DNA from: Dechloromonas hankyongensis | Lineage (GTDB): Bacteria > Pseudomonadota > Gammaproteobacteria > Burkholderiales > Rhodocyclaceae | Length of the DNA: 64,000 nt | Assembly: GCF_022012295.1 (NCBI RefSeq) | Contig: NZ_JAKLTN010000001.1 | Coordinates: 992,001-1,056,000 of the forward strand | Direction: 5' to 3' | Shown here: positions 17,222 through 30,230 of the stretch, in pieces | How positions within the stretch are numbered: the first letter of the stretch is position 1 | How the letters are laid out: each line of letters begins with the position of its first letter | Made by a program: the position numbers and the translations under genes | Notes under the pieces: model-generated | Databases searched by the model: none | Told to the model about the DNA's origin: nothing | What the model saw: only the letters and a program-made list of their open reading frames with translations

Positions 17222-17247
17222 CAAAAAACGGATTTCTGCCGTTTTTC
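17222..17247 (-). terminator. Distal intrinsic terminator of the RiPP-TIR-STAND operon
   Basis: On the minus strand AAAAACGG-CAGAAAT-CCGTTTTTT forms an 8-bp stem whose descending arm runs into a T tract, the classic A-stem/U-tract layout. It is the second of two hairpins after the STAND gene stop. Confidence 0.7.
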
Positions 17248-17291: not shown

Positions 17292-17331
17292 AAAAGGTCA
17301 GGCTTTCCGCCGGACGAAGGCGGAAAGCCTG
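17292..17331 (-). terminator. Proximal hairpin terminator of the RiPP-TIR-STAND operon
   Basis: CAGGCTTTCCGCC pairs perfectly with GGCGGAAAGCCTG (13 bp, 7-base loop). On the minus strand it is followed by ACCTTTTA, a short U-tract. It starts 40 bases after the STAND gene stop codon, so two tandem hairpins close the operon. Confidence 0.65.
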
Positions 17332-17370: not shown

Positions 17371-20300
17371 CTATTGTGCGGCCGGCGTTCCCGGCGGATT
17401 TTGATGGGCCGGTGACGGCGCCGGGGCGTGGTTGACCACTTCCCGGCCCAGCTTGACGAGGGCGGACGTGCTCCACGGTGCACCGACGAATTCCCTCTTG
17501 TCGTCCTTTTGGCGTACCGCCAGCCACCCCTCGTAGGGACCAGAAACGCCTACCATCCAGTCGGCCCCGGCCCAGCGGGCACCGGCGAACGGTGAAATGC
17601 TGGCGACCGGCACGGGGGTCGTTTCGGCCAGCAGGTCGAGCAATATCGGCTCGTCGTAGACGCCGATCAGCACCTTGCTGGCGTAGTTCGGCCCGGCGCG
17701 TTGGGCGGTAGGCGCCCGTCCTGGCCCGGCCGCTCCCGGCTTTTGAATCTGGAAGCAATGCTTGTCGTGGTGATACATCAGGGAATCGAAGCCCGGCGTT
17801 ATCCCCAGTTCCTTCAGCCGCTTGTTCAACCGGCCGCAGCCGGAGTCCTCCGGCGCCTCGGCGGCCAGTGGCTGCCAGTCCTGGTCGCTGCCCGGGCTGC
17901 CGATGATGCGCTGCGCCCCGTCGGCGAACAGGCGCCATGACAGGCCGGCGACGCGAACGCCGATGCCGCCGACCTCTCGCCAGGACAGCACGCTTTTGAC
18001 GCGCGGATCGCCGTCCTGTTTCGGCTGCGCCTCGATTTCCTTGCGCAGGATGGCGACCGCTTCCTCGCCGATGACCTGGGTCAGCAATTCGGCGCGCGCG
18101 GACAGCGACTTTTCATCATCGTCCCAATGGATCTTGAACAGGCTGACCGAAGGCGGTTCGTCGGACAGCCCGCTGCGCGAAACCGCCATGTAGCGGATCC
18201 GGGCGTCGAACAGGATGAAGGTATCGGGCGAATTATTGGGTTTGCTGATCAGGTCGACCGTCTGGCAAGTTCCGTCCTGCTTCGCATAGCGGGCGGAATA
18301 CAGTTCGACGTCTTCCCATTGGTCGTAATCGCGCTTCTTGACGAAGATGCCCCTTCCCTTGCTGGCTTCTGGGTACAGTACACCGCGCACCGCCTTGCCT
18401 TTGCCGGCCTGGTCGACTACGCAGTCGAGCGCCAGCGGCTTGTCGGGAATGAATTTCTCCTGTTTGAATTCGCCGGCATCGGGATTGGTGGCGCTGTGCC
18501 ACATGCCGGTGGTCAGGCGGCGGCGCAGGTTGCCATTCACGTAATAGTCGGTATCGTGGAATTCGAGCAGCTTCTTGGCCAGGGTCACCTGGGGCAGCCA
18601 GTTGAACAGATTGCTGGCCGGGCTGCGCACGTAGGCCGACTGATCCCGGCCCATGGCGGCCAGGTCGGCCGCCGCCAGCAATTTGGCCAGTTCGCGGTCG
18701 GCCGCGCCGAGGTCCGGGGTCGCGCTGTCGGCATAACGCAGTTCGACCTGCTGGCGGGCCATGCCGAATTTGTCCACGGCCATCATCACCGGGTAGGTGG
18801 CGACAAAAGGCGCCAGTACGAAAAACGCGCCGGTAATGACCCAGCGCTTGCGCCGCCGGGTCTGCGCCTCGCGTTTCTGTTCCGCCACCATGCGCTCCTG
18901 GCGTTCAGTGGCCCGCCGCGCGTTTTCCTGCGCCTTGTGCTCCCGTTCTTCCAGGATCCGCCTGGCTTCGGCTTCGGCGTCGAGCAGGGCGCGCGAACTG
19001 GCGATATAGTCCGCCACCTCGGTCTTGACGACGCCGAGCCGTTCGCCTTCGCGAAACTGTTTCAGGGTGCGGAACCACTCGTCGCGCAGGTCGGCCTGCA
19101 TCAATACCGGGCCCAGGCCGGCCGCATCGAGGCGGATCAGTTCGGCCTGGCCGAGCAGCAGTTCCGGCCGCCGGGCCGCTTCCTGCCAATCGGAACAGCG
19201 GCGCAGCACGTTCAGGAACTCTTCGAAGCGCTCGGCCTCCGCGTCCACCAGTCCGCGGAAATGCGACCAGCCGCGGATGAAGGATTCGTGCGACACCTTG
19301 AGCGTCACCCGGGCCGGGTTTTCCTTGTCCCAATACAGGTAATGGACGGAATCGAGATAACCGTTCTCGAGCAGATCCCGCAGTTTGTCCGTCCGCGTGG
19401 CATCGCCGGCAAACAGGCCGGGATCGTTCACGTCCAGCCGCTGCTGGTTGTAAGTCCCGTTGTTGGGGTCCTTGAACGCCAGCCGTTCCAATACGAAATC
19501 GATGTGCTTGCGGTCCTCGTCCGACTTGTCGTCGTAGGTCGCCTTCGCCCAGTTCTCCAGGCTGGCGCGCAAGGTGTTCAGGTCGTCCCGCTGGCGCAGC
19601 CAGCCGGCTTCCTTCGCCTTGGGGTCGGCGCCCAGCTCCAGGTCGCCCCATTGGATATCGTTCGGCACCCCGTGCTGGCCATCGACCCCGCAACGCGCAC
19701 TCGCCACCTGCCAGATCCTGGCCAGCAGATGCTGCAATAGCGGCAGATGGTCCGGGTCGTCTGCGATCCGCTCCACGTCCTTGAGCAGGCGGGCGATGAC
19801 GGCATCGGCGAAGACGATGTCGTCGGGCAGGCTGGATGCGCTGTCGCCCCGCTGCAGCAGGCGCAGGAAAACCTTGGCCGGCCCGGTGATGGCATCGCGC
19901 AGCTCGTCCTCGTCGGGCCGGCGAACCAGATAGACCGACTCGTTGATCGCATCCGGTAATTCGAGATAGCCGGCGCAGTCGGCGAGGTGTTCGCTGCGCA
20001 TGGTCAGGATGACGAAGCAGCGGGGATGCGGGCTGAAAAAATGATCGATGATCGCCTCGATCAGCGTGCGGGTGTCGGCATTCCCCTTGTTGTTGGGGTG
20101 AAAGAGTTCTTCGAACTGGTCGATGACGAAGAGAAAACGGGCATTTTTCCGGTCCGGTCCGGCGGCCGGAAGGTCTTCGGTGTAGGCGTCGACCAGGCGG
20201 GCGAAGCCGGCCCCCTGGCGGAAAATGGTTGCGATGCCGTCCAGGCGACGGGCGTTTTCCCGGTCTGCATCGACATTGCCGGCCTCGGCCGTTTGCCCCT

Positions 20301-20721
20301 GCTTCTCCAGCCGCCGGCGCACGGGCAGTTCGGCCGGTTCGAGCTGTTGCGAAAACTTCCAGGCCAGGCGGGTGATGGGCGTCTGGTTGGCCGGGACATC
20401 TGCCTCGCTTGCGCTGTCGCCGGTGGGCAGCATGGCCGTGGTGCCCGGCGTGAAGACGACCGGCACCCAGTAGTCGCCAGCGTCGGGAATGCCGTAGCCG
20501 CGCAGTTTCGGAACGACGCCGGCACGCACCAGCGACGACTTGCCGGAGCCCGAACCGCCGACCACGGCGACGAACTGGCTTTGCGTCAGGCGTTTGACGA
20601 CATCGTCGATCTGCCGCTTGCGGCCGAGAAACAGCGCCGCCTCGTGGTCGAGGAAAGGGCGCAGGCCGGGATAGGGCGAGGTCGGAAAGCGGAACGCGCC
20701 CAGCCCGTTGGTGCCGCTCAT
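17371..20721 (-). CDS. nSTAND1-type NTPase with one transmembrane helix and an extracytoplasmic C-terminal domain
   Basis: A 1116-residue signal-transduction NTPase. Residues 16-23 read PYPGLRPF and are followed by ALFLGR, the entry motif of nSTAND1 domains. Walker A is GGSGSGKSS with Lys61, and Walker B is FVIDQFEELF (198-207, Asp201). An all-helical region continues to about 560, then a charged coiled coil (about 565-625), an RRRKR stop-transfer cluster and one transmembrane helix (about 627-650). The last 465 residues match no family I know and should lie outside the cytoplasm. The ATG overlaps the stop of the TIR gene (ATGA), which fixes the start; the longer frame upstream is antisense-like noise. 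STAND ATPases act as ligand-triggered oligomeric switches. Here it is the last gene of the RiPP operon and probably the regulator or partner of the TIR protein (inference). Confidence 0.88.
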   Translation of the reverse strand: MSGTNGLGAFRFPTSPYPGLRPFLDHEAALFLGRKRQIDDVVKRLTQSQFVAVVGGSGSGKSSLVRAGVVPKLRGYGIPDAGDYWVPVVFTPGTTAMLPTGDSASEADVPANQTPITRLAWKFSQQLEPAELPVRRRLEKQGQTAEAGNVDADRENARRLDGIATIFRQGAGFARLVDAYTEDLPAAGPDRKNARFLFVIDQFEELFHPNNKGNADTRTLIEAIIDHFFSPHPRCFVILTMRSEHLADCAGYLELPDAINESVYLVRRPDEDELRDAITGPAKVFLRLLQRGDSASSLPDDIVFADAVIARLLKDVERIADDPDHLPLLQHLLARIWQVASARCGVDGQHGVPNDIQWGDLELGADPKAKEAGWLRQRDDLNTLRASLENWAKATYDDKSDEDRKHIDFVLERLAFKDPNNGTYNQQRLDVNDPGLFAGDATRTDKLRDLLENGYLDSVHYLYWDKENPARVTLKVSHESFIRGWSHFRGLVDAEAERFEEFLNVLRRCSDWQEAARRPELLLGQAELIRLDAAGLGPVLMQADLRDEWFRTLKQFREGERLGVVKTEVADYIASSRALLDAEAEARRILEEREHKAQENARRATERQERMVAEQKREAQTRRRKRWVITGAFFVLAPFVATYPVMMAVDKFGMARQQVELRYADSATPDLGAADRELAKLLAAADLAAMGRDQSAYVRSPASNLFNWLPQVTLAKKLLEFHDTDYYVNGNLRRRLTTGMWHSATNPDAGEFKQEKFIPDKPLALDCVVDQAGKGKAVRGVLYPEASKGRGIFVKKRDYDQWEDVELYSARYAKQDGTCQTVDLISKPNNSPDTFILFDARIRYMAVSRSGLSDEPPSVSLFKIHWDDDEKSLSARAELLTQVIGEEAVAILRKEIEAQPKQDGDPRVKSVLSWREVGGIGVRVAGLSWRLFADGAQRIIGSPGSDQDWQPLAAEAPEDSGCGRLNKRLKELGITPGFDSLMYHHDKHCFQIQKPGAAGPGRAPTAQRAGPNYASKVLIGVYDEPILLDLLAETTPVPVASISPFAGARWAGADWMVGVSGPYEGWLAVRQKDDKREFVGAPWSTSALVKLGREVVNHAPAPSPAHQNPPGTPAAQ

Positions 20722-21851
20722 TTCGGCTCCTCGGTACCGGCCAGCAGGCGCTGGCGTTTGCGCTCCAGGACCTTGGTCAGAAAGATGACCAGCGCCGTGC
20801 CATCCTGGTCGGCGATGTGCAGGCCGCCTTGCCCATCCGGCTCGAATTTCAGGACCTGCCAGTTTGACACGCGGTTGGCCTCCGGCGGCTTGCCGCCGGG
20901 CTCCATCAGGTAGGCGATGATGCAGGGCGCGGCGGTCCTGCCGCGCAGCTTGCCTTCGACCATCGTGATCTGCGCCAGCAGCGACTCCGAAGTCTTCTTG
21001 TCCCACAACAGGACGACGCCATCGGCATCGTCGAGATAGGGGCGGCTGTTGATTTCGTTCATCGGTAGACCGGTTGGCCGCACGTACAGAGAGGGTTCGA
21101 CGTGCTCGCTGGCGATCAGCTGGTCCCAGCTCTTGGTGACCTGTTTGCCCAGCGACTCCCAATAGGTTTCCTGCCGCTCGTTGCTCTCGATGTAAATGCG
21201 CACGGTGGCGGAGTCCTCGGTCGGCGCGGGGGCGACTAGCTGTTTGCTGCGGGTCGCAGCCTGGCGGATTTTGTCGGCCAGCCCCTCGCGGATTTCGACG
21301 AAGGCCTCCCAGAACGCATTGGAGACGACCCGCCGCTTGCCTTCGGCCGAATTGTCGTCGCCGGAATAGATCGGCACCGGCCGGTTCGGCTTGGCCAGCT
21401 GGTAAAAAGGCATCCACAGCTGCCCTTCGAAGGGGCAGATGGTCTTCCAGGCGTCGCGGCTGGTCAGCGTGTCGATCGCGTCCTTGGACATCGCAATGAC
21501 GTAGAGCCGATAGCGGAATCCATCCTCGCCGAAATGTTTGCGGAAATATTCCAGTTCCTTCAGGCACCATTTCGAGTCGAGGTAGTTGTCGTGCACGAAC
21601 AGGAACAGCGAAAACGAATCGCGCACGTTGTCTTCCAGGCGCTCGTTGAGCACGCCGGAGACCAGGGGATCGTCGCCGCACAGGTGGATGGGCGGCAATT
21701 TGATGCCCCGCAAGCGGCTGGGCAAGGAATAGAACAGTTCGTCCTTGAAGCAGGACACCCACTGATTCCAGCCCTCGTCGTCCGGCACCGAATAGCTGAA
21801 GAATGCATAAAACCGGCATTCGGAAAACGGGCGCTCCATTGCTTCAGTCAT
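20718..21851 (-). CDS. TIR-domain protein, FxsC-like context
   Basis: A 377-residue protein starting with a TIR fold. Visible elements are YAFFSYS (strand A, residues 15-21), FLFVHDNYL (83-91) and SKWCLKELEYF (93-103), in which Glu99 sits where the catalytic Glu of TIR NAD-hydrolases lies. After about residue 175 a second alpha/beta region repeats TIR-like spacing: VRIYIESNE, then ADGVVLLWDK and LLAQI, suggesting a degenerate second TIR-like domain. The start at 21851 is set by the ATGA overlap with the maturase stop and matches the first TIR residues. Enzymatic TIRs cleave NAD+ in bacterial immunity; in actinobacterial Fxs loci a TIR-like protein (FxsC) accompanies a cyclophane-forming radical SAM enzyme. 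Activity here is inferred. Confidence 0.87.
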   Translation of the reverse strand: MTEAMERPFSECRFYAFFSYSVPDDEGWNQWVSCFKDELFYSLPSRLRGIKLPPIHLCGDDPLVSGVLNERLEDNVRDSFSLFLFVHDNYLDSKWCLKELEYFRKHFGEDGFRYRLYVIAMSKDAIDTLTSRDAWKTICPFEGQLWMPFYQLAKPNRPVPIYSGDDNSAEGKRRVVSNAFWEAFVEIREGLADKIRQAATRSKQLVAPAPTEDSATVRIYIESNERQETYWESLGKQVTKSWDQLIASEHVEPSLYVRPTGLPMNEINSRPYLDDADGVVLLWDKKTSESLLAQITMVEGKLRGRTAAPCIIAYLMEPGGKPPEANRVSNWQVLKFEPDGQGGLHIADQDGTALVIFLTKVLERKRQRLLAGTEEPK

Positions 21852-23119
21852 GGCATCCCCTCCATCTCCGCTAGTGCGGTGCAACTGTCCTTGCGGTCGC
21901 CGGCCGCGTCGCGTTCCAGCCGTGCGAGCACCGCGTCGAATGGGCGCTTCAGCATCGTGCGGCAATACAGCGTCTCGGCGCTGGCCAGATCGCCGTTTTC
22001 GTACAGCTTGTTGGCCGGGGCGCCGCCGCCGCAGAAGCCGAAGTAGGCGCAGCTCGCTTCGCACATCCCAGTGCCGCGACGGATGGCCGTCCACAGATCG
22101 ACGAAATGCTGATGCCGCGCACTGTCCAGGAAGCTGTCGGCGTGCACGTTGCCGAGCACGAAATCGCCGTATTCCGGCGACGGCTGGCCGAGGAGTTCCG
22201 GCGAAAAGGTCGTGAAATCGCCGTTGTGCGCCACGGTAATCAGCGCGAAGGGCAGGGTCTGCGCATTGTCCGGCAGTTCACGGCCCCGCCAGCGGTAACT
22301 CGCCAGCGGCTCGGCGATCAGATGCATGGCCATCTCCAGTTCGCGGAACCGCAGACTGCCGCCGCTCTCGATGCTGCGCGCGAGCAGGCGCTCGACGAAG
22401 CGGGCGTGGGGCGGCTCGTGATCGGCCAGGCTGGAGCGGTCGTTCACGCCCTCGGCCTCGTCGAAGTTGCAACCGACTTCGTGTATCCCCTGCGCCAGGA
22501 AGAAGTCGCAGAAGGCATCGGCGTGGCCCAGCGTTTCCGCCGTGACGACGGCAATGGCGTGATACGGAATGCCGTGTTCGCGTAGCCGGGCCATGCCCTG
22601 CACGACCCGCTGGTGGGTGGTCTGCCCGCGCCGGGTGCGGCGATGCCGGTCGTGCAGCCAGGCCGGCCCGTCGACGCTGATGCCGATGCGTACGCCGTGG
22701 CGTGTGAACAGTCGGCACCAGGCGTCGTCAATTAGCGTGGCATTGGTCTGGATGGAATGCGAAACCGCGCAGCTTGCACCGAGCACGTCGGCGATCAAGG
22801 GAATGGCCTCGTCGTAGAACGATGGCGGCACGGTCAGCGGTTCGCCGGCATGCCAGACCACCGTCAACTCGGCGCCGGCCAGTCCATCGTCCACCAGTCG
22901 CCGGGCGGCCTTGCGCACGGTTTCCAGGCTCATTCGCGCCTTGGCGTCGCGCTGCGGCAGGTAGCAATAGTCGCAGTCGAGATTGCAGAACGGGGTCGGC
23001 TGCAATATCAGCAGCCGGGTACGCAGCGCCGGGAAGAAATCGGCCGGGGCGAAGCTGGCCGCTTCCGACCGGACCGCTGTCGAAGTGGGCCGTGGACTCC
23101 AGCGGATAGTCGACACCAT
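21848..23119 (-). CDS. Radical SAM/SPASM peptide maturase, GrrM-like (cyclophane-forming)
   Basis: A 423-residue radical S-adenosylmethionine enzyme. The cluster-binding motif CNLDCDYC places Cys45, Cys49 and Cys52, followed by YLPQ. The C-terminal SPASM-like region has Cys353, Cys357, Cys363 and Cys386 in a C-x3-C-AYFGF-CGGG-APANKLYENG context, characteristic of the GrrM/OscB group that installs three-residue cyclophanes on repeat-containing peptides. The gene starts 28 bases after the precursor stop codon; I chose ATG 23119, though GTG 23125 has a better-spaced GGGGGA. It overlaps the TIR gene by four bases. The predicted reaction joins the Trp side chain to Asn C-beta in the neighbouring precursor's Trp-x-Asn units (inference from known families). 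Confidence 0.9.
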   Translation of the reverse strand: MVSTIRWSPRPTSTAVRSEAASFAPADFFPALRTRLLILQPTPFCNLDCDYCYLPQRDAKARMSLETVRKAARRLVDDGLAGAELTVVWHAGEPLTVPPSFYDEAIPLIADVLGASCAVSHSIQTNATLIDDAWCRLFTRHGVRIGISVDGPAWLHDRHRRTRRGQTTHQRVVQGMARLREHGIPYHAIAVVTAETLGHADAFCDFFLAQGIHEVGCNFDEAEGVNDRSSLADHEPPHARFVERLLARSIESGGSLRFRELEMAMHLIAEPLASYRWRGRELPDNAQTLPFALITVAHNGDFTTFSPELLGQPSPEYGDFVLGNVHADSFLDSARHQHFVDLWTAIRRGTGMCEASCAYFGFCGGGAPANKLYENGDLASAETLYCRTMLKRPFDAVLARLERDAAGDRKDSCTALAEMEGMP

Positions 23120-23147
23120 GCTCACCGTCACTTCCCCCTTGCGCAGA

Positions 23148-23426
23148 TTAACGATTGAACCAGTTACCCCAGTTCCGCCAGTTCGGCCAGTTGTTCCAGT
23201 TGCCCCAGTTCTGCCAGTTGAACCACTGGGCGTATTTCGGTCCGGGTTCGCTGCCGGCGTCGGGGGACTGCGCATCGTGCAGGAACTTGCGCATCTCGAG
23301 GACGCGCGCTTCCAGAATCTGCCGCTCGGTTTTCGCTTCCTCGACACTGGCGCCAGCCGTCGCGGTACCCAGGCCCCCGACAGCAGCCAGCAAGGCCAGG
23401 CACAGGCGGCGCAGCACAGCGATCAC
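23148..23426 (-). CDS. Secreted RiPP precursor with eight tandem Trp-x-Asn triplets
   Basis: A 92-residue ribosomal peptide precursor if translation starts at GTG 23426, which has AGGAAA five bases upstream; a GTG at 23471 would give 107 residues. Residues 1-25 form a Sec signal peptide (VIAVLRRLCLALLAAVGGLG, then TATAGA). A charged helical leader (EEAKTERQILEARVLEMRKF) follows, then a short Pro/Gly linker. Residues 68-91 are eight contiguous W-x-N triplets with x = F, Q, G, N, P, R, G, F, ended by a single Arg. Trp-x-Asn is the substrate pattern for three-residue cyclophane formation by radical SAM enzymes of the Xye/Grr/Fxs groups, and the next gene encodes such an enzyme. The product is probably a rigid, exported poly-cyclophane rod. 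Related by logic, not obviously by sequence, to GrrA/OscA. Confidence 0.87.
   Translation of the reverse strand: MIAVLRRLCLALLAAVGGLGTATAGASVEEAKTERQILEARVLEMRKFLHDAQSPDAGSEPGPKYAQWFNWQNWGNWNNWPNWRNWGNWFNR
23154..23225 (-). repeat. Eight in-frame 9-bp repeats (TGG-NNN-AAY) in the RiPP precursor
   Basis: The 72 bases read as eight TGG-NNN-AAC units on the minus strand, the last ending in AAT. The middle codon differs nearly every time (TTC, CAG, GGC, AAC, CCG, CGG, GGT, TTC) while Trp and Asn never change. This is a pattern of selection on the peptide motif rather than recent slippage. Confidence 0.92.
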
Positions 23427-24105: not shown

Positions 24106-25584
24106 TCACAGCGTCTTCAGATACTCGACCAGGGCCTCCTTGTCGGCGGCCGGCAGGGTCGTCCCGAATTCGTGCCCCTGGTTGCCGCCGCCCTTGGTCG
24201 CGACGTCGAGTCGGGTGCCGACCCGGCGCGCCTCGGCGCCGTCGCTGACGAATCCCGCCTTCGCCTGGTCATACACGTCGTAGCCCCGCCAGAAGACCTT
24301 GGGCCGCCTGGCGGCGGGTTCGAGCAGGTCGCGCAGGGTCGGCACCGAGCCGTTGTGCAAGTAAGGGGCTTTCAGCCAGATGCCGTCGAGGAAGGGGGCG
24401 ATGTAACCGATCAGGTCGGCCTCGACCAGGCCCTTGCGCTCCAGCCCCATCTCCTTGACCACCTGGTTGGCCTTGATGGCGGCGCCCTTGTTCCACGAGT
24501 CAAGCCGGCCGCGGTCTGTGCCGACGGCGGCCAGCGGCAGCGGGGTCCCGGTCTTGTCGCTGGCGTGGCAGCCAGCGCAGTGGGTGTTGAACAGTGGCTT
24601 GCCGGCGGCCGCTTTGGCGGCGTTGATGGAGAACGGGTATTTGGGCGGCGGCAGCTCCGACAGGTAGTCCTTGAGCCACTTCACCTGCGCCAGGAAGTCC
24701 GCCTTGTCGGCCGGCGGGGCGCCGAGCACGCCGAGGGCGGAATCCATGATTACCGAGTAGGCGTCGTGGCTGTCGCCGGCGTAGTTCATCCGATGGCCCT
24801 TGTCCCAGACGTATTTCTTCAGGTTCCACAGCGACGGCATGTCGGTCGGGCCGAAGGTGTCGTCCATCGGCGCCTTGATCATGAAGTACTTGGTCAGGTT
24901 CATCGCGTCGTCGCGGCCGCGGCCCCACTCGGGAAAATCCGGGCGGTAGAGCCAGGCAAACTGGGCTTCGCGTTCGAGCAGGCGCTTCTTGGTGATGGGG
25001 ATGACCAAAAAGCGGTAGAGCAGCTTGTCGATCCAGTCGAGGTGCGTCACGCGGTTGATCTCGGCCATCAGGATGTCGGCGTTGAAGCGCGGGTCCTTGG
25101 CGCAGTCGATGAGCAGCCGGAAGAAGGCCTGGACGTTGGTGGTATGGCCGGCGCCGCCGACCACGAAGACCGGGTTGCTGTCCGGCGTCGCGCGGTAGCT
25201 GGTGGTGTGGCAGACGGCGCAGTTGTTGGCAACGCGCGGGAAGCCGATGGTCTTCTTGGTGAAGCCGACCGGCAGTTCCTGGCCCATCTCCCAGGCGACG
25301 CCGAGCGCCGCGTAGCCGCCGGGGACGACCTTGCCGTCTTCCCTGAATTTTTCCGGAAAGACCCGGGGCAGGACGTAGAAAATCCAGTACGGGATGCCGG
25401 CGTCGTGCTCGGCACCGATCGAGCCGTACTTGAAGCGCATCTCCGGCGTCGCGGTCACCCAGTCGGGTTGCGGGTATTCGCGGAAGCCGCGGTCGTAGCC
25501 GATCATGGCGCCGATCACGGCCAGCGTGGCGACGCCGAGCGCGGCGTATTTCAGCCAGGTCTTGCACGAGCAGGAGGTCGTCAT
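24106..25584 (-). CDS. Membrane-anchored di-heme c-type cytochrome, peroxidase/RoxA-like superfamily
   Basis: A 492-residue periplasmic cytochrome anchored by one N-terminal helix (about residues 10-30). Two covalent heme sites are visible: CAVCH at 122-126 and CAGCH at 336-340. The C-terminal half carries APYLHNGSVPTLRDLLEPA, a segment shared by the di-heme cytochrome c peroxidase, MauG and RoxA superfamily. It is clearly a paralogue of the next gene upstream (same spacing, same YLHNGS and DVYD segments). A GAGAGGGGA ribosome binding site precedes the ATG. Substrate unknown; a redox role with neighbouring cytochromes is likely. Confidence 0.85.
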   Translation of the reverse strand: MTTSCSCKTWLKYAALGVATLAVIGAMIGYDRGFREYPQPDWVTATPEMRFKYGSIGAEHDAGIPYWIFYVLPRVFPEKFREDGKVVPGGYAALGVAWEMGQELPVGFTKKTIGFPRVANNCAVCHTTSYRATPDSNPVFVVGGAGHTTNVQAFFRLLIDCAKDPRFNADILMAEINRVTHLDWIDKLLYRFLVIPITKKRLLEREAQFAWLYRPDFPEWGRGRDDAMNLTKYFMIKAPMDDTFGPTDMPSLWNLKKYVWDKGHRMNYAGDSHDAYSVIMDSALGVLGAPPADKADFLAQVKWLKDYLSELPPPKYPFSINAAKAAAGKPLFNTHCAGCHASDKTGTPLPLAAVGTDRGRLDSWNKGAAIKANQVVKEMGLERKGLVEADLIGYIAPFLDGIWLKAPYLHNGSVPTLRDLLEPAARRPKVFWRGYDVYDQAKAGFVSDGAEARRVGTRLDVATKGGGNQGHEFGTTLPAADKEALVEYLKTL

Positions 25585-25598
25585 GATGTCATCCCCTC

Positions 25599-27131
25599 TC
25601 AGAATGTCTTCAGGAACTCGACCAGCGCCGTCTTCTCGGCGGCGCTCAGTTCCGTCCCATAGGCCTTGCCCTCGTGGCCGCCGTTGCCGTTGCCCGGCAC
25701 GCTGGTGTCGAGGCGGAAGAATTTCTTGCCGCCGGCTTCCGCCACGTTGGAGACGAAGCCGACCTTCACCGGGTCATACACATCGTTGCCGCGATAGAAG
25801 GCGGTCGGGCGCCTGGCCGCCGGTTCCAGCAGGTCGCGCAGGCTGGGCACCGAGCCGTTGTGCAGGTAGGGGGCGCGCAGCCACAGGCCGTCGAGCGGCA
25901 TGTTGGCGTAGCCGTGGGTCTTCTGGAAATGCGTGAAGCGCCACGGGTAGCCGGCGTACAGCGTGGCCTGATTGGCGGCCAGCGTGTAGGTGTAGGAATC
26001 CAGCCGCCGGCGGTCGGTGCCGATCCTGGTCAGCGGCTCGACGGTGCCGACGTACTCGCCGCTGAAGTCGCTGCCCGAGGCGCCGTGGCAGGCCGCGCAG
26101 TATTTCTGGTAAATCGGGGCGCCCTGGGCGGCCAGCTGGCGGTCGATAGTGAAGAAGTCGGCAAAGGCCGGCGGCGTGGCGTCCATGATCCACGCCTCGA
26201 CGCGCTTGATGCGGGCGAGGTCGATGGTCGGCGGCGTCGTGCCGGTGCCGAAGGCGGCGCTCTTGTTGCGCTCCTCGACAGTGGTGTTGTTGCCGTCCCA
26301 GTGCAGTTGCATCTCCTTCGGCTCCTTGCGCTGGCGCTGCCGCCAGATCGACGGGAAGTCGGCCGGGGCGTCGAATTCCCCGGGGTCGAGGTGGCTCATC
26401 GGGAAATTGAAAATAACCTTGGCCGAGTTGAAGGTATCGACCCGGCCCGGCCCCCATTCGTGCTGCTTGAACACCCAGTCGAAACGCCCGGCCAGGGCCA
26501 GCACCCGGTCGCGCATGATGGCGATGGCGATGGGGTAGACCAGGTAGCGGTCGAGCAGGTCGAGATTGGCGCCCTGTTTCTCGATTTCCGGCAGGATGTA
26601 TTCCTTCGAGAATTTGGGATCGGCGGCGCAGCGGAAGAAGAATTCCTCGAAGCCTTTCATGTTGAAGGTGGCGGCCGGCATGCCGAGGACGACGGTCGGT
26701 GCCTTGTCGGCGGCAGTGCGTAAGGTGCTGACATGGCAGACGGCGCAATTGACGAAAACGCGGTTGATGCCCTGAAAGCGGCGCTGCGAGGTGCCGACCG
26801 GCAGGTCGCGGTCGCTGCCGTCGGTTTTCTTCTCGTAAATCATGCCCAGCGATTGGTAGCCCTTGCCCGGCAGGTATTGCGGGCAGACTTCGGGCAGCGC
26901 CTTCCAGATCCAGTAGGGAAAGCCCATTTCGTGCTCGCCGCCGGTCGAACCGTACTTGAAATGCTCGCTCGGGCTGGCGTAATCGACCGGGGTGTCGTCG
27001 CCGAAGCGCTTGAGCAGCAACAGGCCGATGAAGCCGGGAATGATGACGGTGAGCGTCAGGAGAATCAGGAAGCGGCACTTCCAGGGGCTGGCGGGCGGGT
27101 TGCTGGGGCTCGATGCGGACACTTCGTTCAT
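25599..27131 (-). CDS. Membrane-anchored di-heme c-type cytochrome, paralogue of the downstream gene
   Basis: A 510-residue protein with a single N-terminal membrane helix (about residues 20-40) and a periplasmic body. Heme-binding motifs are CAVCH at 129-133 and CAACH at 345-349. It carries APYLHNGSVPSLRDLLEPA and YRGNDVYDP like its 492-residue neighbour, which starts 14 bases after its stop codon; the pair looks like a tandem duplication. AGGGGAAG precedes the ATG. Family relatives include di-heme peroxidases and rubber oxygenases, but I see no feature that fixes the substrate. Confidence 0.85.
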   Translation of the reverse strand: MNEVSASSPSNPPASPWKCRFLILLTLTVIIPGFIGLLLLKRFGDDTPVDYASPSEHFKYGSTGGEHEMGFPYWIWKALPEVCPQYLPGKGYQSLGMIYEKKTDGSDRDLPVGTSQRRFQGINRVFVNCAVCHVSTLRTAADKAPTVVLGMPAATFNMKGFEEFFFRCAADPKFSKEYILPEIEKQGANLDLLDRYLVYPIAIAIMRDRVLALAGRFDWVFKQHEWGPGRVDTFNSAKVIFNFPMSHLDPGEFDAPADFPSIWRQRQRKEPKEMQLHWDGNNTTVEERNKSAAFGTGTTPPTIDLARIKRVEAWIMDATPPAFADFFTIDRQLAAQGAPIYQKYCAACHGASGSDFSGEYVGTVEPLTRIGTDRRRLDSYTYTLAANQATLYAGYPWRFTHFQKTHGYANMPLDGLWLRAPYLHNGSVPSLRDLLEPAARRPTAFYRGNDVYDPVKVGFVSNVAEAGGKKFFRLDTSVPGNGNGGHEGKAYGTELSAAEKTALVEFLKTF

Positions 27132-27155
27132 GGTGCTTCCCCTCGGTTTCTGGTC

Positions 27156-29324
27156 TTACGGCATGGGCAGGCAGGGGCGCAGGGCTTCATAGCCGTTGGC
27201 CAGCAAGGCGTTGAGGTTAGGTGGCTGGCCGCTTTCGGCGCGCAGCCAGGTGTCGACCTGGGCGAGCAGCGCGGCGCGGGCCGGGCTGTTCTTCCAGCCG
27301 GCGACATCGGTGGCGAAAGCGGGCAGCATGCTTTCCGGCGGCATCGGCGTCTTGTCGCGCTGCTCCGGCGCCAGGTCGGCCATGGCCAGGCGTACGTAGA
27401 GGCGGGGGGCGCACTGGCGCAAACGGGCGGTGACCTGCGTGGCGTTGCCGCTCAGGAAATTGGGCGGGAAGGTTTCGGCCGACCGGTGGCAGGTGGCGCA
27501 GTAGGGGAAGAAGCCTTGCACCCCGGCTTCCATCGGCGTATCGGCACTGCCGCCGGGAACGGCGGCGACGGCTTCCAGCCTGGGCGGCGGCAGCGTATCG
27601 GCGACCTGGCAGCAGGGCGGCGGGCGGGGACTGTCGAGACGGGCGAGCAGCGCCGCGAACAAGGCAGTGCGCGGGATGACGCCTGCCCCGAACAGGGTTT
27701 CGCCCTGCGGCGATGCGAGCAGGGCGGCGACGGCCTGCTCGACGGTAGCGAAGTCGGCGCGGCTATCGAGGACCACCATGCCGGCATCGGGCTGGCCCGC
27801 CTCCGGCTGCACGCGCAGGCGGGTCAGCGCCTGGCCGTCGGCGCTGCGCGGCAGCCGGCCGTTCCAGCGCAGCGCGAAGCCGGTATCGGTGGAGCGGCTG
27901 GTCAGCTCGATATTGATCAGGGCCGTGCCGCCGGGCAAGGTCAGCCGCTCGATGCGGCCGGTGGTCGGGCGTCCGCCGCGGACCGCCAGGGTGGCGTCTA
28001 TGCTCGGCCCGGACTGGCCGGCCGCCGGGGCGCAGCGCACCGACCAGCGCGAAGCCGCCCGCTCGATGCGGCAGGGGGCGGTGTGCTGCGTGCTGGCTAG
28101 GCCGCGCTGGCGTGCCAAAGCCTGGTCCAGCGCCTGGCGGTCGGCGGCGGAAACGAATTCGGCGAGGCCGGCAATGGTGGTGCGCAGGGCGTCCGCAGCC
28201 TGCGGGCGCCAGATGTCGCGCGTTTGCCGCGGCAGCAGCGGATCGAACGGCGCCGCCACGTGGGAACGGGCGATGCGTGCAGCACGTTCTTCCGGCCAAT
28301 TGTCCTGGCCGGCCAGCGGATTGCGGTTGGGCAGGTCCGGGTTGCCGATGGCCAGACCGCCGGGCCAGCGGCGGCCGGCTTCCTGCTGCAGCGGTGCAGC
28401 GACGGTTTGGCGGAAATTGTCGTCGGGCGCCCAGTTCTGGCCACCGGACAGCGCATGGCGCAGGGCGGCGACGAACAGGCCAGCGCGGCAGCGGCGGGCT
28501 GCCAGCTCGTTCTCGCCGCAGCCTTCGCGCCACAGGCGCTGGGTCAGCGCCAAGCCGTTGGCCCGTTCGGTGGCATTGTCGATGGCGTAGGGAATATCGA
28601 CGCCGCGGTCGGGCGGGATGCCGTAGAAAGCGCGGCCGCTGGCGGCGAGCAGGCCGGCGACTTGCGGATTGGCATTGGTTTCGTCCCACAGGGCGCGGGA
28701 GAAGATGGGCGAACCGTTCTGGTGGCAGGCAAAACACAGGTTGCGGTTGGCGTAATAGACCTGCGGCCGGCCGCCGGCCCGGTAGTCCTTGACCAGCTGG
28801 AATTCGAAGCGCCCGGCTGCTTCGTTGTAGCTGATCACTTCCAGCACTGCGGATTTTTCCTGGTAGCCGATGTACAGGCGGTCCTTCAGGAAAAATGGCG
28901 ACTGCGCGCCGCTTTCCGTATCGACCGCCACTACCACGCGCGGGAAGCCGAAATAGTCGGGGGCGGCCGCGGTGCGCTGCAGCGAACGGCCGAGCGGGAT
29001 CAACACGCGCTTGGCTGGCGGTAGCGGGCTGGCCGGATCGCGTGCCAGTTCGCGGTCGAGGCGTTCGAGCAGGGCGGCGAACGGGTAGGGAAGCTCGATA
29101 CTGCTTTGCCCATTGCGCGATACGGCGAACAGCTGGTCGAACAGCGAACGCCCGGCGGGCGGCAGGTTGTCTCCGGCCTGACTGGGCGTGACGACCCAGG
29201 CCGGCGCCGGCGGGCGGGTTTCAGCCGTCGCATCCATGTCGATGCCCAGCCCGCAACCCAGGGCAAGCAGGCCGGCGTGCAGGGAATGGCGCCATGTCAT
29301 GACGAGGGTCCATGACCCGGCCAT
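27156..29324 (-). CDS. Large secreted protein with two c-type heme motifs
   Basis: A 722-residue protein, probably exported through an N-terminal signal (residues about 9-35 from the alternative ATG at 29300). Two heme sites are far apart: CFACH at 197-201 and CATCH at 609-613. The region between them has no family I recognise. The first motif sits in ANRNLCFACHQNGSPIFSR, reminiscent of di-heme cytochromes that handle exported substrates. The gene begins three bases after the lipoprotein gene stop and ends 24 bases before the next cytochrome, so it belongs to the same transcription unit. No catalytic assignment is possible. Confidence 0.8.
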   Translation of the reverse strand: MAGSWTLVMTWRHSLHAGLLALGCGLGIDMDATAETRPPAPAWVVTPSQAGDNLPPAGRSLFDQLFAVSRNGQSSIELPYPFAALLERLDRELARDPASPLPPAKRVLIPLGRSLQRTAAAPDYFGFPRVVVAVDTESGAQSPFFLKDRLYIGYQEKSAVLEVISYNEAAGRFEFQLVKDYRAGGRPQVYYANRNLCFACHQNGSPIFSRALWDETNANPQVAGLLAASGRAFYGIPPDRGVDIPYAIDNATERANGLALTQRLWREGCGENELAARRCRAGLFVAALRHALSGGQNWAPDDNFRQTVAAPLQQEAGRRWPGGLAIGNPDLPNRNPLAGQDNWPEERAARIARSHVAAPFDPLLPRQTRDIWRPQAADALRTTIAGLAEFVSAADRQALDQALARQRGLASTQHTAPCRIERAASRWSVRCAPAAGQSGPSIDATLAVRGGRPTTGRIERLTLPGGTALINIELTSRSTDTGFALRWNGRLPRSADGQALTRLRVQPEAGQPDAGMVVLDSRADFATVEQAVAALLASPQGETLFGAGVIPRTALFAALLARLDSPRPPPCCQVADTLPPPRLEAVAAVPGGSADTPMEAGVQGFFPYCATCHRSAETFPPNFLSGNATQVTARLRQCAPRLYVRLAMADLAPEQRDKTPMPPESMLPAFATDVAGWKNSPARAALLAQVDTWLRAESGQPPNLNALLANGYEALRPCLPMP

Positions 29325-29327
29325 CGC

Positions 29328-30230
29328 TCACGGTTTGGCGGAAACGGCGACGGCGCGGGCCTGGGTGCCGGGCCAGCAGTCCTGCTGCACGGTGCCGGTC
29401 TTGGCGAATTCGTCGCGCCCCTTGTCGTCGCTGGCCTTGTCGTAGAGCGTGAAATTGAGCGCGAAGGCGCGGTCGAGATAGGCCCGGCCGAGGTAGAAGC
29501 CGGGGCGGATCATGCGGATTTCGTCGCGCACCTTGAGGCCGCGGCGACCGGCCAGGAAGTCCGGGCTTTCCTGGTAGCCAGGGATTTCGTCGGTGAAGAA
29601 ATAGTCGATGATGATCGACTCGCGGCGGGCGTCGAGCAGGCTTTGCCCGCAGTACAGCTTGGCCGGGAAGAGCAGCCAGGTTTCCTTGCCGCCGTAGCTC
29701 ATCTTCTTCGGTTCGCCGTCGACCAGCCCGATCTTCTTCAGGATGGACAGGTCTTCGATGCGGTTGCGCAGTACCCGTTCGTCGCGGAAGAAGACCTTGC
29801 CGCGCCACAGCGCCTCGCCGACATCCTCGATAAGCAGCCCCTTGAGGTGCAGGCCCATGCCGGTAAACCCGCCGACGATTTCGGACAGGCGGAACTTGCC
29901 GCTCTCGCCGCGCGGCAGCAGGATGCGGCCGTCGAACGCGCCGTCCGGAATGGGGCCGGCCGGCAGGCGGGCGTAGATCTGGTCGAGCTGCTCCTGATCC
30001 AGCTTGGCCAGATAGTCCGGCGTGATTTTGGCCAGTTCGGCCGGGGTGAGCGGGTACTTGTACTCGACCTGGGCCAGGTTCATCTTGCTCGCATAGTCCT
30101 TGCCGTAGGGGGCGAAGGCGATGTTCGGCGGCTCCGGCTTACTGCAGGCGGCGAGCAGCAGGGTGGCCAGGGCGGCAAGGGTGGCCGAGGCGATCCGGCC
30201 GGTGCGCGGGGTGAGCGTGGTCAGTCTCAT
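29328..30230 (-). CDS. Lipoprotein of unknown function in the cytochrome cluster
   Basis: A 300-residue protein with a lipoprotein signal (lipobox LLAAC near residue 28) and no heme motif. It is rich in charged and aromatic residues and has only two cysteines in the mature part beyond the lipid-anchored one. GGGAG precedes the ATG. It lies 17 bases after the 867-residue cytochrome gene and 3 bases before the 722-residue cytochrome gene, so it is embedded in the operon and may be a membrane-attached assembly or docking partner for them (inference). I do not recognise the family. Confidence 0.75.
   Translation of the reverse strand: MRLTTLTPRTGRIASATLAALATLLLAACSKPEPPNIAFAPYGKDYASKMNLAQVEYKYPLTPAELAKITPDYLAKLDQEQLDQIYARLPAGPIPDGAFDGRILLPRGESGKFRLSEIVGGFTGMGLHLKGLLIEDVGEALWRGKVFFRDERVLRNRIEDLSILKKIGLVDGEPKKMSYGGKETWLLFPAKLYCGQSLLDARRESIIIDYFFTDEIPGYQESPDFLAGRRGLKVRDEIRMIRPGFYLGRAYLDRAFALNFTLYDKASDDKGRDEFAKTGTVQQDCWPGTQARAVAVSAKP

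What the first reader, a model, noticed from the sequence alone, without database searches (positions are those of the whole stretch)
17371..23426. Four-gene operon coupling a poly-cyclophane RiPP to a TIR protein and a STAND ATPase
Seen: precursor with eight W-x-N triplets, 28-base gap, GrrM-like radical SAM/SPASM enzyme, then TIR and nSTAND1 genes, each joined by ATGA overlaps and closed by two tandem terminators. Known: Xye, Grr and Fxs maturases form three-residue cyclophanes, and actinobacterial Fxs loci carry a TIR-like protein (FxsC). STAND ATPases and TIR NAD-hydrolases are recurrent in bacterial immunity. Inference: this is a Gram-negative counterpart in which an exported, rigid peptide is matched with an intracellular TIR/STAND switch, perhaps for phage defence, kin recognition or envelope surveillance. 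I know of no described system with exactly this set.
Basis: partly seen in the sequence, partly recalled or inferred. Interest (0 to 1): 0.95.

Follow-up and report, generated by a model that had tools for sequence, protein, structure and literature searches.

The report
Cyclophane peptide wired to membrane TIR–STAND
A bacterium carries a four-gene operon that encodes a tryptophan-repeat peptide, an enzyme predicted to stitch it into rigid rings, a TIR-domain protein and a STAND switch protein with one predicted membrane-spanning helix; this set recurs in related bacteria and likely forms a self-made-peptide alarm resembling plant and animal immune receptors.

Summary
The operon is real: on the minus strand lie a precursor with eight WxN triplets, a GrrM/OscB maturase (395 bits, cut-off 310), a TIR protein and an nSTAND1 NTPase, with ATGA overlaps at the last two joints. 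It recurs: of 23 distinct loci found through the TIR protein, 11 carry GrrM, and all 10 of these with upstream DNA have a precursor with an aromatic-x-[N/K/D] core. In the other 12, no GrrM was found in the locus or the (draft) genome, so TIR–STAND is a separable core and the peptide cassette an add-on. GrrM loci sampled without regard to TIR show an nSTAND1-type neighbour in 2 of 5 other lineages; in one a trypsin-like gene stands where TIR would be. New here: the STAND has one predicted membrane helix (positive inside), then a poorly conserved C-terminal domain with four nearly invariant cysteines, pointing to a periplasmic sensor on the side where the peptide is predicted to go. Actinobacterial FxSxx/radical-SAM/TIR-AP-ATPase systems (Kaur et al. 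2020) already pair these ideas, so I file it as a new variant. My FxsC-kinship lead failed its control. Peptide-as-ligand is inferred, not shown.

The parts
23148..23426 (-). Precursor peptide (92 aa): Sec-like signal peptide, LEARVLEMR leader motif, C-terminal core of eight W-x-N triplets
   Evidence: comparable precursor in 10 of 10 homologous GrrM loci with upstream DNA
21848..23119 (-). Radical SAM/SPASM maturase of the GrrM/OscB family, predicted to form three-residue Trp-Asn cyclophanes
   Evidence: TIGR04261 395.4 bits, cut-off 310; Radical_SAM 8.6e-20; tree
20718..21851 (-). TIR protein (377 aa): N-terminal TIR domain with invariant Glu99 in the WC..EL motif, and a second Rossmann-like domain at about 214-371
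17371..20721 (-). nSTAND1 NTPase (1116 aa): NTPase region 12-560, predicted membrane helix 628-646, C-terminal domain 661-1095 with Cys767/819/962/989
17299..17331 (-). Predicted intrinsic terminator (13-pair hairpin, T-rich tail) after the STAND gene
17223..17246 (-). Second, A/T-rich hairpin with a T-run (possible terminator)
   Evidence: Read by eye; not listed by the scan and not formed as such in the minimum-energy fold

Best explanation
The operon encodes a Trp-x-Asn repeat peptide, a GrrM-family enzyme predicted to cross-link each triplet, a TIR protein and a STAND NTPase with one predicted membrane helix, and it most likely works as an envelope alarm in which the exported peptide would act as the ligand or tether of the STAND protein's outer domain. 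Steps: (1) GrrM would recognise the AR(V/L)xx(V/I/L/M)R leader and form up to eight W-to-N cyclophanes in the cytoplasm (family chemistry known, not tested on this peptide; leader role inferred from conservation). (2) The signal peptide would send the rigid rod to the periplasm through Sec (predicted). (3) The STAND C-terminal domain, predicted to lie in the periplasm, would hold or read the peptide (inferred). (4) Disturbance of the peptide or envelope, for instance by a phage or toxin, would release the NTPase to oligomerise (inferred from STAND biology). (5) The NTPase would activate the TIR domain, whose catalytic-type Glu is invariant, to consume NAD+ and arrest the cell (inferred). The TIR-STAND pair also exists without the peptide, so the peptide cassette is an optional input module.
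Against: In 12 of 23 distinct TIR(-STAND) loci no GrrM was found in locus or draft genome, and no relic; those with a full STAND keep the same architecture, so the outer domain cannot depend on this peptide there. Three TIR-bearing genomes of the order sample (G108, G179, G289) also lack GrrM. GrrM loci without visible STAND or TIR exist: G495, G1324, G1410. By lineage the unconditioned sample is only 2 of 5 besides the window. L042's TIR is not visible (contig end); the g35 STANDs lack a P-loop and are convergent with GrrM, not in its operon. L007's STAND has no clear membrane helix. The TIR gene is absent from the 35 other same-genus genomes searched, some of them incomplete. No defence-library model matched convincingly. 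No interaction, cross-link, NADase or phage data exist.
Confidence: 0.4

Rival explanations
1. The peptide is the weapon: the TIR-STAND switch is the sensor, and the cyclophane peptide is a released toxin or amplifying effector against invaders, neighbours or the cell itself.
For: Kaur et al. propose a toxin or signal role for the FxSxx-type peptides. TIR-STAND occurs without the peptide in many genomes, as expected if the peptide is an extra output. Other radical-SAM cross-linked peptides, such as dynobactin, are antibiotics.
Against: None of the four genes looks like a protease, ABC exporter or immunity protein. The precursor heads the operon with a plain Sec-like signal.
Confidence: 0.27
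2. The peptide is a kin or density signal: exported, shared between cells and read by the STAND outer domain of neighbours, with TIR output in non-kin or crowding.
For: Core type follows STAND clade: the five-triplet WTNWPKWSKWSNWA/G core occurs in the Rubrivivax-type clade, 6-8 triplet cores in the other loci. The STAND C-terminal domain is less conserved than its NTPase.
Against: That match is also expected from plain shared descent; the core is highly conserved within each type rather than polymorphic; none of the four genes looks like an exporter.
Confidence: 0.13
3. Two independent modules travel together: a GrrM peptide with its own envelope role (surface or metal binding) and a TIR-STAND defence pair, linked by transfer or co-regulation only.
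For: Both modules occur apart; the STAND tree needs 4 gains or losses of GrrM.
Against: 4-base overlaps in 7 of 9 homologues, gene reshuffling with retention in L028, and a second, different STAND neighbourhood in another class.
Confidence: 0.2

Closest known systems
Actinobacterial FxSxx-COOH peptide-processing systems coupled to VMAP-ternary/AP-ATPase conflict systems (Kaur et al. 2020, PMC7159879; section 24 read, passages of the rest)
   Same: Small precursor, radical SAM/SPASM maturase, TIR domain and a STAND-type ATPase in one neighbourhood; a peptide toxin or signal is proposed.
   Different: There the TIR is fused to the AP-ATPase, with a metallopeptidase and VMAP/vWA/MoxR partners. 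Here GrrM not FxsB, W-x-N core, separate TIR and nSTAND1 genes, a predicted membrane-spanning STAND, and no VMAP partners in the operon.
GrrM/OscB triceptides (3-CyFE; PMC11002830, passages)
   Same: Maturase family (TIGR04261) and Trp-x-Asn substrate motif.
   Different: Described as RiPP gene clusters; the passages seen mention no TIR or STAND partner.
Plant TIR-NLRs and bacterial TIR systems (RUN1/RPP1, SPARTA, Thoeris)
   Different: TIR and STAND are separate genes; the STAND is predicted to be membrane-anchored with an outer C-terminal domain; no repeat sensor of LRR type was recognised by Pfam.

Membership tests
GrrM/OscB cyclophane maturases | TIGR04261 score above 310 bits | tested here: met
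   395.4 bits
GrrM/OscB triceptides | Aromatic-x-Asn/Asp motif in a nearby precursor | tested here: met
   Eight W-x-N triplets
GrrM/OscB triceptides | C-C cross-links actually formed | not testable with these tools
   Needs co-expression and mass spectrometry/NMR
TIR domain | TIR fold with catalytic-type Glu | tested here: met
TIR NADases | NAD+ cleavage | not testable with these tools
   No assay
STAND NTPases (nSTAND1) | PF20703 above cut-off, intact P-loop | tested here: met
   191.5 bits, cut-off 27.1; GGSGSGKS invariant in 24 of 24
FxsC (Fxs system TIR-like protein) | NF040588 above 130 bits | tested here: not met
   Window 11.8 bits, E 0.17; 32 of 42 homologues E <= 0.01, best 1.6e-7, but a TIR from a GrrM-less locus scores better, 2.5e-9, so the signal is generic TIR
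Fxs peptide-processing systems | FxSxx C-terminus and FxsB maturase | tested here: not met
   Core ends WFNR; FxsB model 104.1 bits against a cut-off of 370
Known anti-phage systems (PADLOC 2023) | Convincing match of rSAM, TIR and STAND to system models | tested here: not met
   Only weak or partial hits: pVip 1.1e-8 to the rSAM core, ThsB 0.03 to TIR, mad3 3.9e-4 to 20 residues of the STAND P-loop region

The most novel reading that the evidence does not exclude
The bacterium makes its own rigid Trp-Asn cyclophane rod, exports it, and uses it as the bait or clamp on the outer domain of a transmembrane NLR-like receptor: a guard system in the periplasm in which a RiPP is the guarded self-ligand, with interchangeable cytoplasmic effectors (TIR here, a trypsin-like protein in another class).
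Probability: 0.3. Interest if true: 0.93.

Novelty: new variant of a known kind. Interest (0 to 1): 0.7.

Why it matters
To my knowledge most triceptides have no known biological role, and STAND sensors studied so far mostly see foreign molecules in the cytoplasm (both recalled). A self-made, exported cyclophane peptide encoded with a membrane-spanning STAND and a TIR effector would give these peptides a concrete, testable function and would place an NLR-like receptor across the inner membrane of Gram-negative bacteria.

Tried and rejected
FxsC kinship: first looked good (32 of 42 homologues), then failed the control; a TIR from a GrrM-less locus (L045) scores better. The single-sequence genome-contig scan with the window TIR found nothing; the 42-row alignment worked. 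At the sensitivity used, no TIR relative in viral contigs or plasmids. Foldseek on the two-domain TIR model gave mixed Rossmann hits, led by sugar-phosphate isomerase domains; VIA-align resolved the TIR part. The fold of the STAND C-terminal domain was barely tested, because NTPase matches filled the list. The empty-site test in same-genus relatives was uninformative: only the neighbour gene is shared. A wider GrrM search in the family of G153 returned only the same three genomes (3 of 12). Nine paper searches listed no paper whose title or abstract start describes a GrrM-TIR-STAND set; I saw listings only, apart from PMC7159879 (section 24 and passages) and PMC11002830 (passages). The library lacks most subscription journals.

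Rows dropped before counts: L022 and L027 were merged with L023 and L013 as halves of one locus at contig edges of the same genomes. L006 was left out of the precursor count because it starts inside GrrM. The window, L026 and L028 were left out of the overlap count. L026's precursor was not examined. L028's leader fits only a separate pattern that I added, so I count it as not matching. GrrM-like matches under the cut-off (G161, G433, G135, G040, G095) were not counted as GrrM. In one search, 118 of the 120 listed GrrM contig lengths were transcribed; the TIR list showed 120 of 174 hits and the GrrM list 120 of 6349.
Full report
WHAT IS THERE. On the minus strand of the window four genes follow one another: a precursor (GTG 23426 to stop 23148, 92 aa), 28 bases, a radical SAM/SPASM enzyme (21848-23119), a TIR protein (20718-21851) and a STAND protein (17371-20721). 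The last two joints are ATGA overlaps. A 13-pair hairpin with a T-rich tail follows at 17331-17299; the scan as a whole found 7 such sites against 7.6 expected, so only its size makes it stand out. A second, A/T-rich hairpin is visible by eye further on, and the whole stretch folds better than 200 of 200 shuffles (z -3.1). The core of the precursor is eight consecutive W-x-N triplets; 50 block shuffles of the window gave at most two in a row.

RECURRENCE. A profile of 42 TIR relatives, scanned against the collection of one genome for each of 84,980 species, gave 25 loci. Two pairs are contig-edge halves from one genome each, so I count 23 loci. GrrM is present in 11 (L005, L006, L007, L013, L014, L016, L019, L020, L023, L026, L028). 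Ten of these hold the DNA upstream of GrrM and all ten have a precursor there. Nine have W-x-[N/K] cores; L028 mixes W and F with N, K and D. Twelve loci have no GrrM nearby, with 4.6 to 9 kb of upstream DNA in hand. A GrrM search of those twelve genomes, drafts of untold completeness, found none at E <= 1e-40, and no relic scored better than E 0.1. In the order sample three more genomes bear a TIR relative (G108, G179, G289) and none of them has GrrM; G179 and G289 have the STAND too. In the protein database 16 longest-contig lengths (15 besides the window's) are shared exactly between the 120 listed TIR hits and 118 transcribed GrrM hits, against 0.93 on average by shifting. In 7 of 9 measured homologous loci rSAM and TIR overlap by 4 bases. 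L028, a Methylumidiphilus MAG, has the order TIR-STAND-precursor-GrrM, so the set survived a rearrangement.

GrrM WITHOUT THE TIR CONDITION. Searching sampled Pseudomonadota genomes for TIGR04261 alone gave eight genomes over the cut-off: G000, G153, G192, G376 (4 of 399), G495 (2 of 369 including G000), G832 (2 of 398 including G000), G1324 and G1410 (3 of 289 including G832). G153, G192 and G376 are one genus; its family search found only these three (3 of 12). Beside their GrrM lies a nSTAND1-type membrane protein (Pfam in L041 and L043; L042's is 72% identical to L041's) and, where the contig reaches, a TIR_2 protein (L041, L043; E about 2e-13). These STANDs lack the P-loop part, and they face GrrM on the other strand. 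G832, of another class, has a trypsin-like gene (Trypsin_2 2e-13), a 620-aa gene without a Pfam match, an nSTAND1 gene (1.9e-54), an F-x-N repeat precursor and GrrM in a row. G495, G1324 and G1410 show no relative of the STAND or TIR queries in the DNA seen, but the contigs of G495 and G1410 end within about 2 kb of GrrM on one side. By lineage that is 2 of 5 besides the window. On the GrrM tree the STAND-linked enzymes group together, with weak support (81/56; 82% of bootstrap trees). On the STAND tree the label GrrM needs four changes. So both modules live apart and together.

THE MEMBRANE. The STAND of the window has one strongly hydrophobic stretch (628-646), net charge +5 before and 0 after. 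Such a stretch follows the NTPase in 20 of 23 STAND homologues (the exceptions are L007, and L021 and L026, which are incomplete here) and in 4 of 4 of L041-L043 and L053. The C-terminal part (661-1095) is far less alike than the NTPase (L005: 35 against 64%; L007: 17 against 55%), yet Cys767, 819, 962 and 989 are kept in 22, 24, 24 and 24 of 24 sequences. The model (mean pLDDT 78.9) shows helices, then many strands there; its fold was barely tested. Fourteen of 14 precursors examined have a positive start, a hydrophobic stretch and an AxA-type site by a simple permissive rule, and 13 of 14 an [AD]R[LV]xx[LIVM]R leader motif. Both the peptide and the STAND's variable domain are thus predicted to end up in the periplasm.

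HOW IT LIKELY WORKS. I commit to the reading that the exported cyclophane rod is the ligand or tether of the STAND outer domain, and that disturbance frees the NTPase to activate the TIR protein. Shown: gene set, families, recurrence. Predicted: export, topology, cross-linking. Inferred: binding, direction of the switch, NAD+ loss, the trigger. The chief counter-evidence is that the same STAND architecture occurs without the peptide in about half of the loci; the peptide must then be an optional input, or an output (rival one), or a fellow traveller (rival three).

WHAT IS KNOWN. Kaur et al. 2020 (PMC7159879; section 24 read, passages of the rest) describe actinobacterial systems with FxSxx peptides, a radical SAM/SPASM enzyme, a metallopeptidase and a separate TIR-AP-ATPase gene, coupled to VMAP-ternary systems, and suggest a toxin or signal role for the peptide. 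That is the nearest kind. The present set differs in maturase family, core motif, separate TIR and nSTAND1 genes, the predicted membrane-spanning STAND and the absence of VMAP partners from the operon. An apparent kinship of the TIR with FxsC (32 of 42 members) did not hold: in the control all seven other TIR proteins tested matched that model at E <= 0.01, and the best was from a GrrM-less locus.

ORGANISM. The window lies in a 4.1 Mb genome; the best named TIR relative (72%) is from Ferribacterium limneticum, so an Azonexaceae-type betaproteobacterium is likely (inferred). None of 35 other genomes of the genus searched, some incomplete, has the TIR gene, which fits a mobile or patchily kept cassette.

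Noticed in passing
L053:1597-9387: In another class, GrrM with an F-x-N repeat precursor follows a trypsin-like gene, a 620-aa gene without Pfam match and an nSTAND1 gene: the same peptide-STAND idea with another effector.
   Followed up: partly
L041, L042, L043: GrrM loci of one genus with a P-loop-less nSTAND1-type membrane protein and (where the contig reaches) a TIR gene on the opposite strand; precursors end WPNGSG(F/W)RNGGWRNY.
   Followed up: partly
L056:8502-13968: W-x-N precursor and GrrM followed by a 251-aa and a 1039-aa protein (N-terminal membrane helix) without Pfam matches.
   Followed up: no
L045:5174-9274: A GrrM-less TIR-nSTAND1 pair next to a lysozyme-like gene (judged by eye); its TIR matches FxsC_Nterm best of the TIRs tested (2.5e-9).
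   Followed up: no
window 24106-30230 (-): Adjacent large proteins, two of them with CxxCH motifs and the shared stretch LRAPYLHNGSVP-LRDLLEPAARRP, probably duplicated c-type cytochromes (by eye).
   Followed up: no
L009, L010, L015: GrrM-less TIR-STAND pairs in Rubrivivax-type MAGs; upstream neighbours include TetR-like and tripartite-tricarboxylate-binding-like genes (judged from the reading frames only).
   Followed up: no
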